Shown piece by piece: positions 36,650-45,007 of a stretch of DNA of 64,000 nt (the first letter of the stretch is position 1; each line of letters opens with the position of its first letter). Below the pieces are notes generated by a model. That model searched no databases, was not told the DNA's origin, and saw only the letters and a program-made list of their open reading frames with translations. The stretch comes from Hyphomonadaceae bacterium (GTDB taxonomy: Bacteria; Pseudomonadota; Alphaproteobacteria; Caulobacterales; Aquidulcibacteraceae), in the NCBI GenBank assembly GCA_016791425.1, contig JAEUMQ010000013.1, forward strand, positions 1 through 64,000, given 5' to 3'. A program made the position numbers and the translations under genes.

Positions 36650-37101
36650 GCGAATGGCGAATGGCGAATGGCGAATGGATCATCCCTCGCGCTCCAGCTT
36701 GGCCTGCAATGACCGGATCAGCGACCGCAACCGCTTGCCGAGGGACTCGCAGGGCGCCATCAAAACGCCCAGACGTTCCTCGGAGAGGATTTCCACCTCC
36801 TTCGCCAAATAGAGATGCGTCTCCAGCTCCTTCAACGATCCCTGCGCGACCCGCAATCCCTGCATGAAGGACTTTGTGTGCTCGCGGCCATGCCCCTCGG
36901 CGATGTTGACGGGAACTGAAGCAGCGGCCCGCCGGATTTGCGAAGTCAACCCGTACAGCTCCTCTCGCGGGAACGATTTCGTCTCCCGATAGAGCAGCGC
37001 AGCCAGGGCCACACCGTCTCTCCAGACAGTCAGGTCGCGGTAGGAATTGATCTCGTCCGCCACGTCGATCCCAATTCGCCATTCGCTATTCGCCATTCGC
37101 C
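36650..37101. mobile_element. Putative mobile element: four-helix-bundle gene bounded by inverted heptad arrays
   Basis: The left end (36650-36677) is four perfect GCGAATG heptads. The right end (37074-37101) is four inverted heptads (ATTCGCC/ATTCGCT). The 452-bp unit contains a single gene (36680-37096) and lies between nuoC and nuoD. No transposase is encoded. Two related palindromes without the gene occur at 10305-10394 and 14646-14722. Mobility is inferred from this distribution. Confidence 0.65.
36680..37096 (-). CDS. Four-helix-bundle protein (S23/IVS family)
   Basis: A 138-residue protein with the family pattern [47 protein letters not shown] and [14 protein letters not shown], matching the S23/23S-rRNA intervening-sequence family and the Avd-like four-helix bundles. 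The fold suggests a homopentameric nucleic-acid-binding barrel by analogy; function is unknown. Its first codons (MANSEWRIG) are encoded by the heptad repeat, and the ATG overlaps the nuoC stop by 11 bp. It is not known as a complex I component. Confidence 0.88.
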
Positions 37102-38954: not shown

Positions 38955-40901
38955 ATGCCCGCTAGTTTGGCGCCGCTGGGGGACACCTTGCCTTACGACC
39001 GCACCCACGCGCCTGGCCTGCTGCCGGCCGACGCGCCTTTAGGAATGCCCCGTCAGCCCGTTTCGGCGGACGCGCGCCCATACCGAATGCGCTACGGGCC
39101 CCGCGTCGGCCCCAGCATGGCGATCCGCCGCACGATCGTGTTCGGCGCCGCGATCCTGGTGACGATCGCGGCCTTCTCCGCGCCCCTCGACCTCTTCCGC
39201 GGCGACGGCTTCAGCCCGCTCGAGCTCACCGGGCTTGCGCTTTTCTGCCCGCTTTTCATCGGCATATCGCTCTGGTTCTGCAACGCGGTGGTCGGCTTCA
39301 TCCTGGTCGCAAGCGGCGCCCGCGACGATATCGGCGACCTCGCGGGCTGCGCGCCCAACCGCAGCCGCACCGCTCTCCTCGCCCCGATCCGCAACGAGGA
39401 TGTCGCCGCCGTCTATGCGCGCCTGCGCGCCATGGACCGCGACCTCGCCGCCCGCGATTCAAGCGTCGGCTTCGACTTCTTCGTCCTCTCCGACACCAAT
39501 GACGGCGCGATCGCGAGTCAGGAGACGGTGGCGCACGGCATCGCCGCCGCCTCCGCGCACAGCCGCTTTTATTATCGCCGTCGTTTGGACAACACGGGTC
39601 GCAAGGCCGGCAACGTCGCCGATTGGGTCCGCCGTTTCGGCGGCGGCTACGATTTCATGGTCGTGCTCGACGCCGACAGCGTGATGAGCGCCGATGCGCT
39701 CCTGAAGCTGGCCGGCGCCATGGAGGCGCGCCCGGACCTCGGTCTCATCCAGTCAATTCCCACCATTGTCGGCGCCGAGAGCCTGTTCGCGCGCCACATC
39801 CAGTTCGGTATGCGCCTCTATGGCCGCATCGCCGCGGTCGGCATGGCCTGGTGGGCGGGGACCGAGAGCCCGCACTGGGGGCACAACGCCATCGTCCGCG
39901 TCGAGGCCTTCGCGGAGGCCGCCGCGCTGCCCCGCCTGTCCGGGGATCCGCCCTTCGGCGGCGAGATCCTGAGCCATGACGTCGTCGAGGGCTGGTTCAT
40001 GCGCCGCGCCGGCTGGGGCGTCGCGATGGCCCCGACGTTGGCGGGCTCCTACGAGGAAACGCCCCCGACCCTGCAGGACAACGCCCAGCGCGACGCGCGC
40101 TGGTGCCAGGGCAACCTCCAGCACATCGGCCTCTTGAACGCGGGCGGCCTGCATTGGTTGAACCGTCTGCAGCTGCTGATGGCGGTGATGATCTACGCCG
40201 CCGCGCCGCTTTGGCTCGCCTTCCTCACCGTCGGCGTCACGCTGCGCCTGGAACAGGGCCTGCCGAAGGAGGGCGAGCCCTGGTTCTCCGGCGGCGCCGA
40301 GCGCCTGCTCGAACTGCACTGGAGCATCATCCTCACGGTCGTCGTGCTCTTCTCCCCCAAATTGCTTGGCGCCTTCCTCATTCTCGTCGATCCCGCCGAG
40401 CGGCGCGCCTATGGCGGCGCCAACCGCCTCGGCCTCTCGGTGCTGGCCGAGTTGCTGATGTCGGCGTTGATCGCGCCGATGCATATGCTCTCGTCCTGCC
40501 GTGCGATCGCCGCCGCGATCCTCGGCCGCGACGGCGGCTGGGGCGCTCAGCGCCGCCGCGCCGGATCGAACGCCGGCGTCTGGCAGGAAAGCTGGAGCGC
40601 GTATGGCTGGATGAGCTTCTCCGGCCTCTGCCTCGCGCTGATCGCCGCGCCCTATTCCGATCTCGTCTTCTGGATGGCGCCGATCATCATCGGTCTTGTG
40701 CTTGCAGCCCCGCTTGCGGCGGTCACCTCGAGCACGCGCCTGGGCGCCTTCGCGCGCAAGCTCGGCGTCTACAACACGCCTGAGGAAAGCGAACCGCCCG
40801 AAGTGCTGCGCGATGTCGTCACCGATGCGCAATCGCTCCCCGAGCTTCCGTCGCTGGCGCCGGCGCCCGATCTCCTGACGCCGGGCCGCCGCCTCGCGTG
40901 A
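38955..40901 (+). CDS. mdoH: Osmoregulated periplasmic glucan glucosyltransferase (OpgH/MdoH)
   Basis: A 648-residue inner-membrane GT2 glycosyltransferase that polymerises UDP-glucose into periplasmic glucan. Visible features: N-terminal TMs (about 55-80 and 92-120), the GT2 domain starting TALLAPIRNEDVAAVYARL, DxD-type VLDADSVM, ILSHDVVEGWFMRRAGW, the QRDARWCQGNLQH motif (QxxRW) and several C-terminal TMs. A typical opgG partner is not in the window. The start follows GGAGCG. Confidence 0.94.
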   Translation: MPASLAPLGDTLPYDRTHAPGLLPADAPLGMPRQPVSADARPYRMRYGPRVGPSMAIRRTIVFGAAILVTIAAFSAPLDLFRGDGFSPLELTGLALFCPLFIGISLWFCNAVVGFILVASGARDDIGDLAGCAPNRSRTALLAPIRNEDVAAVYARLRAMDRDLAARDSSVGFDFFVLSDTNDGAIASQETVAHGIAAASAHSRFYYRRRLDNTGRKAGNVADWVRRFGGGYDFMVVLDADSVMSADALLKLAGAMEARPDLGLIQSIPTIVGAESLFARHIQFGMRLYGRIAAVGMAWWAGTESPHWGHNAIVRVEAFAEAAALPRLSGDPPFGGEILSHDVVEGWFMRRAGWGVAMAPTLAGSYEETPPTLQDNAQRDARWCQGNLQHIGLLNAGGLHWLNRLQLLMAVMIYAAAPLWLAFLTVGVTLRLEQGLPKEGEPWFSGGAERLLELHWSIILTVVVLFSPKLLGAFLILVDPAERRAYGGANRLGLSVLAELLMSALIAPMHMLSSCRAIAAAILGRDGGWGAQRRRAGSNAGVWQESWSAYGWMSFSGLCLALIAAPYSDLVFWMAPIIIGLVLAAPLAAVTSSTRLGAFARKLGVYNTPEESEPPEVLRDVVTDAQSLPELPSLAPAPDLLTPGRRLA

Positions 40902-41036: not shown

Positions 41037-41957
41037 ATGAAGTACACGACATGCGCGGCGCTAGCCGCAACCCTCGCGGCCGGCGCCTGCAGCCACGGCC
41101 ATTCGCGCTTTTTCGCCATGAGCGGGGGCGTTGCGACGCCGGCCGCGCAGAACTCCGAATCCATGCCGGCGGAAAATCCGCCCACGGACGGAATTGAAGC
41201 CGCGCCGGAGCCGCAGCGCGCCCCCGACGCCGATCCTTCGAACAATTCGAACGACGATGCGGCGCCGCCTCGTCCCCAAAGCGGCCCCCTGGCGCGCACG
41301 ACGGGCCGGCTCACCCGTGCCGGCGGCCGGGTGTTCTATTCCGGCGGCAACGCCGTCCTCGGCGTCGGCGAGCACGGCGGCGGGATCCTCCGCCGCAAGG
41401 GCGAGCACGCGCGCGATCTCGGCCGCGATCTCGAAGAGGAAGGCATCGCGGGCGTTCCGGTTGTCGGCGGCGCTGCGCAGCACGCCGTCGCCGGCATCGA
41501 CACGGGCCTGAACGGCGCCGCGCAAGTGCGCATCGTCGGCCTGCCTGTTCTCGGCGCGTCCGGTGCGAATTCCGCCTTCGGCGTCGGCGCGCTCTCCGGT
41601 CAGACTGCGACCGGCGCGATCGCCAGCGCGAACCTCTTGAACCCGGGCGCCCAGCAGCCCGCGTCGCTGAACGTGGCGGGCGTGCAGGTCCTCGGACAAT
41701 CCGGAGCCCAAGCGGCGGTCGGCGTGAGCGTTCTGCCGAACGCGCCTGCGCTCAGCTCGGTCGCGACGGTGAATGTCGGCCTGCAGCAGGGCTCGCAACT
41801 CGCCGACGTCTCGCTCGCCGGAACCCAGCTCCTCGGCCAGTCCGGAACCACCGCAGTCGTGCAGGCGGGCGTCCTCAACAGCACGCCGCTCACGCCCGTC
41901 GTCCAAGGCGCCGTCGGCGCCGTCGGCGGCGTCGTGGGAGGCTTGCTCGGCCACTGA
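41037..41957 (+). CDS. Lipoprotein with a 47-residue tandem repeat, partner of a TpsB-like gene
   Basis: A 306-residue protein with a lipoprotein-type signal (LAAGAC, C18) and a Pro/Asn/Asp-rich spacer to about residue 85. A Gly/Ala/Val-rich region follows, built from repeats beginning GVPVVGGAAQ, GLPVLGASGA, GVQVLGQSGA and GTQLLGQSGT. The spacing between the last three is exactly 47 residues; the first unit is shorter (29). The C-terminus is hydrophobic and glycine-rich (GAVGGVVGGLLGH). No TPS secretion domain is seen. It lies 16 bp upstream of the TpsB-like gene, so it is probably its substrate or accessory. No known family. Confidence 0.65.
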   Translation: MKYTTCAALAATLAAGACSHGHSRFFAMSGGVATPAAQNSESMPAENPPTDGIEAAPEPQRAPDADPSNNSNDDAAPPRPQSGPLARTTGRLTRAGGRVFYSGGNAVLGVGEHGGGILRRKGEHARDLGRDLEEEGIAGVPVVGGAAQHAVAGIDTGLNGAAQVRIVGLPVLGASGANSAFGVGALSGQTATGAIASANLLNPGAQQPASLNVAGVQVLGQSGAQAAVGVSVLPNAPALSSVATVNVGLQQGSQLADVSLAGTQLLGQSGTTAVVQAGVLNSTPLTPVVQGAVGAVGGVVGGLLGH

Positions 41958-41973
41958 GAGAAGGAGAACGCGA

Positions 41974-43623
41974 TTGACCATTGAGCGGCGCGATCCGCGC
42001 ATCCTCTGCGCCCTGGCGCTTGTCGCCTTTGGCTCGGAGCCCGCCCTAGCGCAGAACGCGCCGCTTCTCATCGATCGATCGCGCATGGATCGGGCGCCTG
42101 TGCTCCCGGCGCCCGAAACCATGCGGCCGGCGGGTCTGCGCGGCCGCATCGAGATGGACGGGGTCGCCGCGCCGGCGGCCCCGTCGCCTTTCCGCGAAGC
42201 GCGCATCGCCGGCTCGAGCCTGCCGGCGCAGGTTCTCCTCGACGCCTGGCGCGACCGGGTCGGGGTCCCGCTCGACGCCGCGCTCGTCAATGCGATCGCC
42301 GCGCGTCTCCTCGCTGCATACCAGCGCAGCGACGTCGCCTTCTTCAGCATCGTCGCGCCCGATCAGGACCTCGCCGCCGGCGCTTTGGACATCGTCGTCA
42401 TCGAGGGCCACATCGCCGACATCGAGATCCAGAGCGAGACCCCGACCGCCCCCGATCTCGCGCTGGCCCGAAGCTACGCCGCGCACCTGCTCGCAGAACG
42501 GCCGCTCCGCCGCGCAACGCTCGAGCGCACGCTCTCGCTCATCCGCGACATCCCCGGCGAGCGCATCGAAGCGCGCCTCTCGCCCGGCCAGGACCATGGC
42601 GCAGCCAACCTGACCCTGGCCATGGATCGCAATCGCGCCGATGTCGGGGTCACGGTCTCCAATCGCGGCACGCCGCTGCTCGGGCGCACCCAGGCGAACG
42701 CCGACCTTTCGCTCTATGGTCTTTTGCACGGCGGCGACCGCACCGATCTGGCCGTCACCCTGCCGGTCGGCGAAGACCTCTTCAGCTTCGTCTCGGCCGG
42801 CTATTCCACGTTCGTCGGAAGCAACGGCGCGCGCGTTGCCGCGAACATCAGCCATCTGACGACCCAGCCGAAAGGCGCCTCGAGCGAAGGCGAAGCCACC
42901 GCCGGCGGCATCACTTTTTCCTATCCGATCACCCGCTCCTACACGCGCAATCTCTCCGCCAGCCTTGGGCTTGACGCGCTCAACACCCAGAACGCAGTCC
43001 TCGGGCAGCTCGCCGACACCAGCCGAACCCGCGCGCTGCGCGCCAGCCTCGCTTATTCCGATGCGAACGAGCGCCAATCACGAAGTCTCGCGCTCATCGG
43101 CAGCGCCGGGCTCGGCGAGCTCAATGCCTATGTGAACCCGCTCGTCGGCGAAGAATCATTCGCCAAGCTCTCCGTGCAGGGCGCCTGGAGCCGCCTGCTC
43201 ATGCCGCAACTGGCGCTGCGCCTGCGCTTCCAGGGTCAGACGACGGCCGACATCCTGCCAGCTTCGGAGCTCTTCGCGCTCGGCGGCGACGAGTTCGGCC
43301 GCGCCTATCCCTCCGCGATCATCCAGGGCGACGACGCGATCGCCGGCGCGCTGGAGACCGCCTTCCTGGCCGGCGCGCTGCTGCCGCCCTTGCTGGCGGG
43401 CTCGGAAGCCTACGTGTTCCTGGACGGGGGCTCGGTCTGGCTGCACGACCGCCCGCTCCTTCCCGGGGCCGATTTCGATCTTTCCTCGATCGGCGCCGGC
43501 GTGCGCATCGGCTATCGCAACCTGGCTGTGGCGACCCTGGAATTGGCCGGCGGCCTCGACGAGCCTTATCCGGGCGCCGAGGCGGATTGGCGGCTGGTCT
43601 ACCGGATCGAAGGGCGCCGCTAG
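41974..43623 (+). CDS. ShlB/FhaC/HecB-family outer-membrane transporter (TpsB-like)
   Basis: A 549-residue protein with a signal peptide (about residues 1-28, ending ALAQN), a POTRA-like region (FREARIAGSSLPAQVLL through VIEGHIADIEIQ) and a C-terminal beta-barrel of about 350 residues. This is the layout of two-partner secretion transporters. The start is TTG behind AAGGAG; no ATG in this frame lies nearby. The upstream partner is small and lipoprotein-like rather than a large TpsA exoprotein, which is unusual. Confidence 0.85.
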   Translation: MTIERRDPRILCALALVAFGSEPALAQNAPLLIDRSRMDRAPVLPAPETMRPAGLRGRIEMDGVAAPAAPSPFREARIAGSSLPAQVLLDAWRDRVGVPLDAALVNAIAARLLAAYQRSDVAFFSIVAPDQDLAAGALDIVVIEGHIADIEIQSETPTAPDLALARSYAAHLLAERPLRRATLERTLSLIRDIPGERIEARLSPGQDHGAANLTLAMDRNRADVGVTVSNRGTPLLGRTQANADLSLYGLLHGGDRTDLAVTLPVGEDLFSFVSAGYSTFVGSNGARVAANISHLTTQPKGASSEGEATAGGITFSYPITRSYTRNLSASLGLDALNTQNAVLGQLADTSRTRALRASLAYSDANERQSRSLALIGSAGLGELNAYVNPLVGEESFAKLSVQGAWSRLLMPQLALRLRFQGQTTADILPASELFALGGDEFGRAYPSAIIQGDDAIAGALETAFLAGALLPPLLAGSEAYVFLDGGSVWLHDRPLLPGADFDLSSIGAGVRIGYRNLAVATLELAGGLDEPYPGAEADWRLVYRIEGRR

Positions 43624-43673: not shown

Positions 43674-43750
43674 TGGCGCGAGTGACGGGGCTCGAACCCG
43701 CGACCTTCGGCGTGACAGGCCGACGCTCTAACCAACTGAGCTACACCCGC
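43674..43750 (-). tRNA. tRNA-Asp (anticodon GUC)
   Basis: The reverse strand from 43750 gives acceptor GCGGGTG, D-arm GCTCAGTTGGTTAGAGC, anticodon loop in GGCCTGTCACGCC (GTC), T-arm CGGGTTCGAGCCCCG, closing CACTCGC, discriminator G and an encoded CCA. Confidence 0.97.
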
Positions 43751-43948: not shown

Positions 43949-45007
43949 ATGAAGGGCATCATTCGCACCCTTCTCATCATCGTCGCCATCATCGTCGTCG
44001 GCGGCGTCGCCGGCTATTTCGTGCTGCCGGCCAAGGCCAGCCGCGCTGAGAGCTTCACGGTGGCCCGTCCGCCCGCGAGCGTCTTCGCACGCATCGCCTC
44101 CACGCCGCCGGGCACGGTGATCGCCGAGGGCGTCACCCAGACGGCCATCACCTCGGCCGAGAACAACGTCGTGGTCGCCGAAGTGGCCTATGCCGACGGC
44201 TCCACGGGCGTGGCGACCTACACCGTCGCGCCGGACGGCGAAGGCTCGCGCGTCGAGCTCAAGCTGGAGCAGAACCTGGGCGCCAATCCGATGGACAAGC
44301 TCGGCGCCCTCACCGGCGGCGAAGTCGGCCCGCTCGTCACCGCCGCGGCGGCCGCGGTCACCACCGACCTCAACGCGCTTCCCGCAGCGGCCTTCACCGG
44401 CCTTGCGTACGAGGTCACCACTGTGACGGCGCGTCCGTTCCTCTACAATCAGAACTGCAGCCCGCAGGACGCTTCCCAGATCAAGGAAGCCGTGGCCCAG
44501 AGCCTCGTCGTCCTGAAGCCGCTGCTGACGCGCTTCAACCTCACCCAGGACGGCCCGCCGATCGCGGTCGAAACCTCGTGGGAGAACAACCAATATTGCT
44601 TCCAGATCGGCTTCGCCTTCACCGGCACGCCGCCGCGCCTCTATGCCGGCGGCACGGTGGGCACGACCCCGGCCGGGCAAGCGATCCGCGTGCATTATTC
44701 CGGCGCGGAAGAGAACGTCATCCCAACCTACGACCAGATGGAGGCGCTGATCGCGTCGGCCCGCCTGACGCAGGGCAAGTCGTTCGAGATCTATTATGAC
44801 GATCCGGCGGCCACCGGCGGCTCGGTGAGCCGCGACATCTTCTACCTCGTGGAAGGCGACGCCACTGCGCTGGCGCGCGTGGCGCCGTCCGCAGGCGCGG
44901 TGCCTGCGGCCGCTTCGGCCCCGCCGGCCGCGCCCGCAGCAGCGCCAGCAGCCCCGGCTGCCGCGCCGGCGGCGACAACGCCGGCCCCGGAGCCCGCGAA
45001 GCAATAA
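43949..45007 (+). CDS. Membrane-anchored SRPBCC/GyrI-like protein
   Basis: A 352-residue protein with one N-terminal membrane helix (about residues 5-27). Next comes an SRPBCC-like segment (ESFTVARPPASVFARIAS, about 35-160) and a GyrI-like small-molecule-binding region (about 165-290, with TYDQMEALIASARLTQGKSFEIYYDDP). A Pro/Ala-rich tail of about 35 residues ends the protein. A ligand-binding envelope role is likely; the ligand is unknown. It starts after GGGGAG and is followed by its own terminator. Confidence 0.75.
   Translation: MKGIIRTLLIIVAIIVVGGVAGYFVLPAKASRAESFTVARPPASVFARIASTPPGTVIAEGVTQTAITSAENNVVVAEVAYADGSTGVATYTVAPDGEGSRVELKLEQNLGANPMDKLGALTGGEVGPLVTAAAAAVTTDLNALPAAAFTGLAYEVTTVTARPFLYNQNCSPQDASQIKEAVAQSLVVLKPLLTRFNLTQDGPPIAVETSWENNQYCFQIGFAFTGTPPRLYAGGTVGTTPAGQAIRVHYSGAEENVIPTYDQMEALIASARLTQGKSFEIYYDDPAATGGSVSRDIFYLVEGDATALARVAPSAGAVPAAASAPPAAPAAAPAAPAAAPAATTPAPEPAKQ

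What the first reader, a model, noticed from the sequence alone, without database searches (positions are those of the whole stretch)
41037..43623. TpsB-like transporter paired with a small 47-residue-repeat lipoprotein
The transporter has a signal, POTRA-like part and barrel, as in two-partner secretion. Its upstream neighbour is only 306 residues, has a lipobox cysteine and lacks a TPS domain. It carries repeats beginning GLPVLGASGA, GVQVLGQSGA and GTQLLGQSGT at exactly 47-residue intervals (a shorter first unit begins GVPVVGG). I do not know a described system with this architecture; it may be a surface-display or adhesion pair.
Basis: partly seen in the sequence, partly recalled or inferred. 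Interest (0 to 1): 0.68.

Follow-up and report, generated by a model that had tools for sequence, protein, structure and literature searches.

The report
Repeat lipoprotein with its own barrel
A small predicted lipid-anchored repeat protein is encoded next to its own outer-membrane barrel, and this two-gene pair recurs across many alphaproteobacteria, usually with a collagen-like stalk, which suggests a so far undescribed route for putting lipoproteins on the cell surface.

Summary
P0001 (306 aa) has a lipoprotein-type signal, no TPS domain, and repeats at residues 168, 215 and 262 (spacing 47). P0002 is a ShlB/TpsB barrel, read from TTG 41974.

The pair is not a one-off. The barrel belongs to a well-supported clade (29/29 rows, 100/100) whose members lie beside a lipoprotein of one family, in Hyphomonas, Henriciella, Marinicaulis, Parvularculaceae, Sphingopyxis, Sphingomonas, Sphingobium and Plastoroseomonas. 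Most of these lipoproteins carry a collagen-like stalk; P0001 has a Pro/Asn-rich linker instead. A repeat-unit profile built without P0001 matches it at 7e-13.

Sister barrels pair with true TpsA or lie divergent from FecR plus CHASE2-GGDEF-EAL genes. A Sphingobium/Novosphingobium branch adds a 2OG-Fe(II) oxygenase, perhaps a hydroxylase of a (GPT)n stalk.

Most likely the barrel displays the lipoprotein on the surface, working like Slam but built from a TpsB. Lipidation, display, topology and adhesion are untested; both structure predictions failed. No earlier description was found in the held papers.

The parts
41037..41957 (+). Lipoprotein gene (P0001, 306 aa)
   Evidence: ORF; family membership by repeat-unit HMM at 7.2e-13 and by position next to the barrel
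41037..41087 (+). Predicted lipoprotein signal peptide, residues 1-17
   Evidence: Sequence; Ala17-Cys18 invariant in 21 members; AlphaFold gives a helix at residues 2-15
41088..41090 (+). Cys18, predicted lipidated; the +2 residue is Ser, not Asp, so outer-membrane sorting is expected (E. coli rule, general knowledge)
   Evidence: inference
41091..41450 (+). Spacer, residues 19-138: motif SHGHSRFFAMSGG, Pro/Asn/Asp-rich linker, then TGRLTRAGGRVFYSGGN. It stands where relatives carry Gly-X-Y collagen-like or Gly-rich stalks
   Evidence: Alignment A3; longest Gly-X-Y run 2, against 6-20 in relatives read with their N-terminus
41451..41537 (+). Short first unit, residues 139-167 (GVPVVGG...)
41538..41678 (+). 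Repeat unit 1, residues 168-214
   Evidence: unit HMM i-E 2.3e-6
41679..41819 (+). Repeat unit 2, residues 215-261
   Evidence: unit HMM i-E 7.5e-8
41820..41954 (+). Repeat unit 3 (weaker) and the Gly/Val C-terminus GAVGAVGGVVGGLLGH, residues 262-306; a GGLLGG-like end recurs in many family members
   Evidence: unit HMM i-E 0.022
41963..41966 (+). Probable ribosome-binding site GGAG of the barrel gene
   Evidence: Sequence; inference
41974..43623 (+). ShlB/TpsB-type outer-membrane transporter gene (P0002, 549 aa, TTG start)
   Evidence: a profile of close relatives matches CdiB at 2.1e-22 and FhaC at 2.8e-7
41974..42051 (+). Predicted cleavable signal peptide of the barrel (..FGSEPALAQ)
   Evidence: Sequence; inference
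42214..42408 (+). POTRA_2-like domain, residues 81-145
   Evidence: Pfam PF08479, E 1.1e-4, 22.4 bits against a cut-off of 24
42628..43506 (+). ShlB barrel region, residues 219-511
   Evidence: Pfam PF03865, 58.8 bits against a cut-off of 22.7; genome search

Best explanation
The two genes form a dedicated surface-lipoprotein export pair. The lipoprotein is exported by Sec, lipidated at Cys18 and sorted to the outer membrane. The TpsB-type barrel, through its POTRA domains, recognises it and threads it across the outer membrane; the long flexible spacer acts as a stalk or as a thread through the pore. The 47-residue repeat region is displayed outside, held at its N-terminus by lipid, probably as an adhesive or matrix protein. 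Shown: the conserved pairing, the lipoprotein-type signal, the barrel family, the separate barrel clade, the absence of a TpsA. Inferred: lipidation, outer-membrane sorting, that the lipoprotein is the cargo, its final topology, its adhesive function.
For: Barrels next to this lipoprotein form one clade (29/29 rows, 100/100; one change of label, 0 of 500 shuffles as low). Linkage holds both ways: where sequence is available the lipoprotein lies beside the barrel, and all 18 of 398 order genomes with the lipoprotein core also have this barrel; in G237 the contig with the lipoproteins ends in the barrel's 5' part. P0001 is a true member: unit HMM built without it gives 44.1 bits, E 7.2e-13, best of 1000 shuffles 7.9 bits. 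No TPS-domain protein in the window's genome, nor in 17 of 20 other genomes with the pair; the 3 that have one also carry further ShlB genes. The lipoprotein behaves like cargo: three tandem lipoproteins for one barrel in G237, two in Novosphingobium RL4, and stalk length and repeat number vary widely. The relatives of solved structure, CdiB and FhaC, are protein exporters.
Against: No experiment shows export. Known TpsB proteins recognise a TPS domain (PMC5422565), which this partner lacks, and an N-terminal lipid anchor is unusual for a TpsB substrate. The lipobox of P0001 is loose (AGAC). P0001 is divergent: the core alignment A5 does not find it and it has no collagen-like stalk. Structure prediction gave no confident fold (pLDDT 42 and 35).
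Confidence: 0.64

Rival explanations
1. The lipoprotein is not cargo but a stable subunit or plug of the barrel, as LptE is for LptD. The barrel then exports something else, such as a protein encoded elsewhere or a glycan.
For: Strict gene pairing is also what a two-subunit complex would give. Some annotators call related barrels 'sugar transporter'.
Against: Three lipoproteins to one barrel in G237 and two in Novosphingobium RL4. Hypervariable low-complexity stalks and variable repeat number do not look like a plug. No third gene conserved across the whole clade was seen beside the pair.
Confidence: 0.17
2. The lipoprotein stays in the periplasm, tethered to the outer membrane, as a spacer or envelope-structural protein; the neighbourhood to the barrel reflects co-regulation only.
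For: Lipidation by itself puts it on the periplasmic face; low-complexity stretches also occur in periplasmic tethers (general knowledge).
Against: Linkage to one dedicated barrel clade from the window's order to Sphingomonadales and Acetobacteraceae.
Confidence: 0.1
3. An ordinary two-partner secretion system with a shortened TpsA: the lipoprotein descends from a TpsA that lost or eroded its TPS domain.
For: The barrel belongs to the TpsB superfamily, and other barrels in the same order pair with true TpsA.
Against: No TPS-domain match in P0001 or in the 20 other lipoproteins of A3 at E up to 0.1. They carry a lipoprotein-type signal. The linked barrels are an old separate clade, so this is not a recent decay.
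Confidence: 0.08

Closest known systems
Two-partner secretion (type Vb): FhaC/FHA, CdiB/CdiA, ShlB/ShlA
   Same: The transporter is of the same family (Pfam ShlB, POTRA, profile matches to CdiB and FhaC) and is encoded next to a putative exported partner.
   Different: The partner is about 300 aa, has a lipoprotein-type signal and lacks a TPS domain. The barrels form a separate clade.
Slam surface-lipoprotein translocon (DUF560/PF04575) with TbpB and similar lipoproteins
   Same: A dedicated outer-membrane barrel gene beside a lipoprotein gene. Surface display was shown for Slam (PMC5449769, PMC9090332) and is proposed here.
   Different: Slam has a TPR N-domain and a 14-strand DUF560 barrel (PMC5449769); P0002 has POTRA plus a ShlB barrel and no PF04575 match.
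Bacterial collagen-like surface proteins (Scl1/Scl2, Legionella Lcl, Burkholderia Bucl8)
   Same: Many relatives of P0001 carry Gly-X-Y stretches that match Pfam Collagen (11 of 21) and the Scl/Lcl models.
   Different: P0001 itself has no such stretch. No dedicated TpsB barrel was found described for collagen-like proteins; Bucl8 is an efflux-pump component (PMC7682875).
PlpD and other Omp85 proteins that carry their own cargo
   Same: An Omp85-type barrel moving a non-TPS domain to the surface (PMC4104836).
   Different: In PlpD the cargo is a patatin domain fused to the barrel; here it is a separate lipoprotein.

Membership tests
TpsB (ShlB/FhaC/CdiB) transporter | ShlB-type barrel | tested here: met
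   PF03865 at 58.8 bits against a cut-off of 22.7; profile of close relatives matches CdiB at 2.1e-22
TpsB (ShlB/FhaC/CdiB) transporter | Two ShlB-type POTRA domains before the barrel | tested here: inconclusive
   One POTRA_2 in P0002 at 22.4 bits, cut-off 24; over the cut-off in relatives L221 and L218. A second POTRA was not shown separately.
Two-partner secretion system (type Vb) | Partner is a TpsA with an N-terminal TPS domain (PF05860) | tested here: not met
   No match in P0001, none in the window's genome, 8 genomes positive in the same search
Two-partner secretion system (type Vb) | The partner is transported through the TpsB barrel | not testable with these tools
   Needs an export assay
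Slam translocon | TPR N-domain plus DUF560 (PF04575) barrel | tested here: not met
   P0002 matches ShlB and Omp85, not PF04575. The PF04575 search of the own genome was empty but had no positive control.
Bacterial collagen-like protein | Uninterrupted Gly-X-Y tract | tested here: not met
   P0001 longest run 2; relatives read with their N-terminus 6-20. Pfam Collagen in 11 of 21 members, not in P0001.
Outer-membrane lipoprotein | Signal peptide with lipobox Cys, no Asp at +2 | tested here: inconclusive
   Cys invariant in 21 members, +2 Ser; the -3 position is Ala in P0001; no lipoprotein predictor was available
The lipoprotein family described here | Shared repeat unit of about 45 residues and, next door, a ShlB barrel of the linked clade | tested here: met

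The most novel reading that the evidence does not exclude
A distinct outer-membrane export class in which a TpsB-clade barrel recognises and surface-displays lipid-anchored, often collagen-stalked repeat proteins that have no TPS domain; in Sphingobium and Novosphingobium it includes a dedicated 2OG-Fe(II) dioxygenase that hydroxylates the (Gly-Pro-Thr)n stalk.
Probability: 0.42. Interest if true: 0.8.

Novelty: new variant of a known kind. Interest (0 to 1): 0.62.

Why it matters
If true, the TpsB family is not limited to TPS-domain cargo, and bacteria have another dedicated route, besides Slam, to put lipoproteins on the outside. It also gives a recurrent Gram-negative setting for collagen-like proteins, with a candidate modifying enzyme in one branch. 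The system is only two genes, so what a TpsB barrel recognises when no TPS domain is present can be tested directly.

Tried and rejected
A P0001 search over 60 family genomes gave only two weak matches; the one read in full is a hydrophobic membrane protein with a low-complexity match, dismissed. AlphaFold of P0001 and of the Sphingopyxis relative was too poor for a fold search, so none was made. A PDB search with the lipoprotein core gave only IF-2 matches at E 0.37 or worse, dismissed. NCBIfam SslE and PylB matches to P0001 at E 0.01-0.05 are far below cut-off, dismissed. PHROGs: nothing. The own-genome searches for PF05860 and PF04575 had no positive control; the first was repeated with controls, the second is not used as proof of absence. 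The gap in barrel-HMM score between linked and other barrels (over 390 against under 300 bits) is partly circular, because the HMM was made from linked barrels; the trees are the independent test. Whole-protein lipoprotein models were too weak on P0001, and were replaced by the repeat-unit model.

Full report
What is in the window. The lipoprotein gene (41037-41957, +) and the barrel gene (41974-43623, +) lie 16 bp apart, after an mdoH-like glucosyltransferase gene (38955-40901; NCBIfam 702 bits) and before tRNA-Asp (43674-43750). P0001 has a lipoprotein-type N-terminus with Cys18, a Pro/Asn-rich spacer and repeats at residues 168, 215 and 262, with a short unit at 139. The lag-47 signal is modest by plain identity (p about 0.01) and strong between adjacent units by substitution score (Z 7.2 and 5.1). 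P0002 is a ShlB/TpsB-type protein.

P0002 is the only ShlB in its genome. No TPS-domain protein is found there; because the first search had no positive control, it was repeated over 26 genomes, 8 of which rang, while the window's genome did not. Of the 21 genomes with the lipoprotein pair in that search, counting the window's own, 18 have no TPS domain; the 3 that have one (G151, G245, G277) also carry further ShlB genes. In the reverse direction, a profile of the lipoprotein core was searched in 398 genomes of the order: 18 have it, and all 18 have a barrel of this group. G237 looked like an exception, being split over two contigs, but the contig with the lipoproteins ends in the barrel's own 5' part.

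The family. The closest barrels by sequence (27-41% identity) were fetched with their surroundings. The gene immediately upstream on the same strand encodes a protein of roughly 300-430 aa with a lipoprotein-type signal, a motif like C[ESN]SxGxxRxAxVG, a Gly-X-Y or Gly-rich stretch, a conserved segment (GDAGALAVGGLVGPxGVAGTGLLANTGD in many), a repeat segment (PLIGASILSPGQQNGSLLTVGVGSGGQLVTL and the like) and often a GGLLGG-like C-terminus. A scan of genomes with names gave the same arrangement in Hyphomonas, Henriciella, Marinicaulis, Parvularculaceae, Sphingopyxis, Sphingomonas kyeonggiensis and Plastoroseomonas arctica. In this group the loci where the profile sees no lipoprotein are ones where the contig ends close by (L065, L109, L121) or the divergent ones whose lipoprotein was recognised by reading (L069, L072, L133).

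Is P0001 itself a member? Whole-protein models were weak (4e-5 to 7e-4 in a set with decoys). Pairwise scores against L069, L072 and L122 stand 5 to 8 standard deviations above shuffles. The decisive test is a profile of the repeat unit made from 20 units of other members and none of P0001: it scores P0001 at 44.1 bits (E 7.2e-13), with the best of 1000 shuffles at 7.9 bits and the next window ORF at 5.3. Its three matches fall on the three 47-residue units.

Phylogeny. In a tree of 67 barrels, the 29 with the lipoprotein form one clade (100/100) that includes P0002, whose sister is G237. Barrels divergent from FecR and CHASE2-GGDEF-EAL genes form a second clade (21 rows, 100/97). Barrels next to a TPS-domain protein fall outside both. 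Partner type therefore follows barrel descent. A second, quicker tree with the Sphingobium/Novosphingobium branch added keeps all lipoprotein-linked barrels together (99). A class-wide sample found no further members of this clade among the 29 best loci read, so the pair is patchy: concentrated in the window's order and in sphingomonads, with one Acetobacteraceae case.

The oxygenase branch. On Sphingobium and Novosphingobium replicons, all 8 distinct loci read of one branch have a 2OG-Fe(II) oxygenase gene (PF13640, 53.5 bits) directly after the barrel. In 7 of the 8, a collagen-like lipoprotein rich in Gly-Pro-Thr, with the same repeat unit, lies further downstream, 0.3 to 4 kb away; in the eighth (Novosphingobium PP1Y, L228) none was seen within 12 kb. 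A stalk-hydroxylating role for the oxygenase is a suggestion only.

Likely mechanism. The barrel family exports proteins (FhaC, CdiB). The neighbour looks like its cargo rather than a fixed subunit, because one barrel can stand beside three lipoproteins and because stalk and repeat number vary so widely. Since the cargo is predicted to be lipid-anchored at its N-terminus, it would stay attached to the outer membrane with the repeat region outside. Whether the lipid remains in the inner leaflet with the stalk through the pore, or is flipped outwards, cannot be decided here. Structure prediction did not help.

Known systems. Searches of the held library found no description of a TpsB barrel paired with a lipoprotein or a collagen-like protein. 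Most subscription papers are not held, so this is not proof of novelty. The TPS review describes recognition through the TPS domain (PMC5422565). The passages read of the Omp85/TpsB survey name no lipoprotein-cargo group (PMC4104836). Slam is the closest functional parallel but is a different protein (PMC5449769).

Gain in this lineage. In the same-genus genomes examined, the nuoA neighbourhood holds other genes. In G012, nuoA, a relative of the window's 43949-45007 protein, and tRNA-Asp lie together without mdoH, lipoprotein or barrel. The protein search finds no P0001 relative in the three other genomes of the genus. A horizontal or lineage-specific gain is likely, but loss in the others is not excluded.

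Noticed in passing
L024, L026, L028-L032, L084, L087-L094, L096, L098, L101 (for example L031:5975-11315): A second non-TPS class of ShlB barrels: a clade of 21 lying divergent from a FecR-domain protein with a long low-complexity (often Asn/Gly-rich) tail and a CHASE2-GGDEF-EAL protein. The FecR protein may be the cargo, and the CHASE2 protein a c-di-GMP regulator.
   Followed up: partly
L219:5675-8158, L221:5609-7971, L224:7649-12045, L225:7616-9944, L226, L227, L231: Barrel, 2OG-Fe(II) oxygenase and (Gly-Pro-Thr)n collagen-like lipoprotein together on Sphingobium and Novosphingobium replicons; a candidate dedicated collagen hydroxylase.
   Followed up: partly
L190:335-4334: Three tandem paralogous lipoproteins before one barrel in genome G237, whose barrel is the closest relative of the window's.
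   Followed up: yes
window 36680-37096 (-): An ORF resembling small four-helix-bundle proteins ([10 protein letters not shown]...VNIAEG) lies between the nuoD-like and nuoC-like genes; a similar ORF lies beside nuoA in L214:238-618.
   Followed up: no
window 43674-43750 and L031 around 5880: Two ShlB barrels of different clades (lipoprotein type here, FecR type in G057) lie beside what looks like the same tRNA-Asp gene; it may be a site of gene gain.
   Followed up: partly
L072:2433-3965: The lipoprotein reading frame in G211 has an Arg/Trp-rich stretch and similar sequence continues in another frame, so it may hold a frameshift or an assembly error.
   Followed up: no
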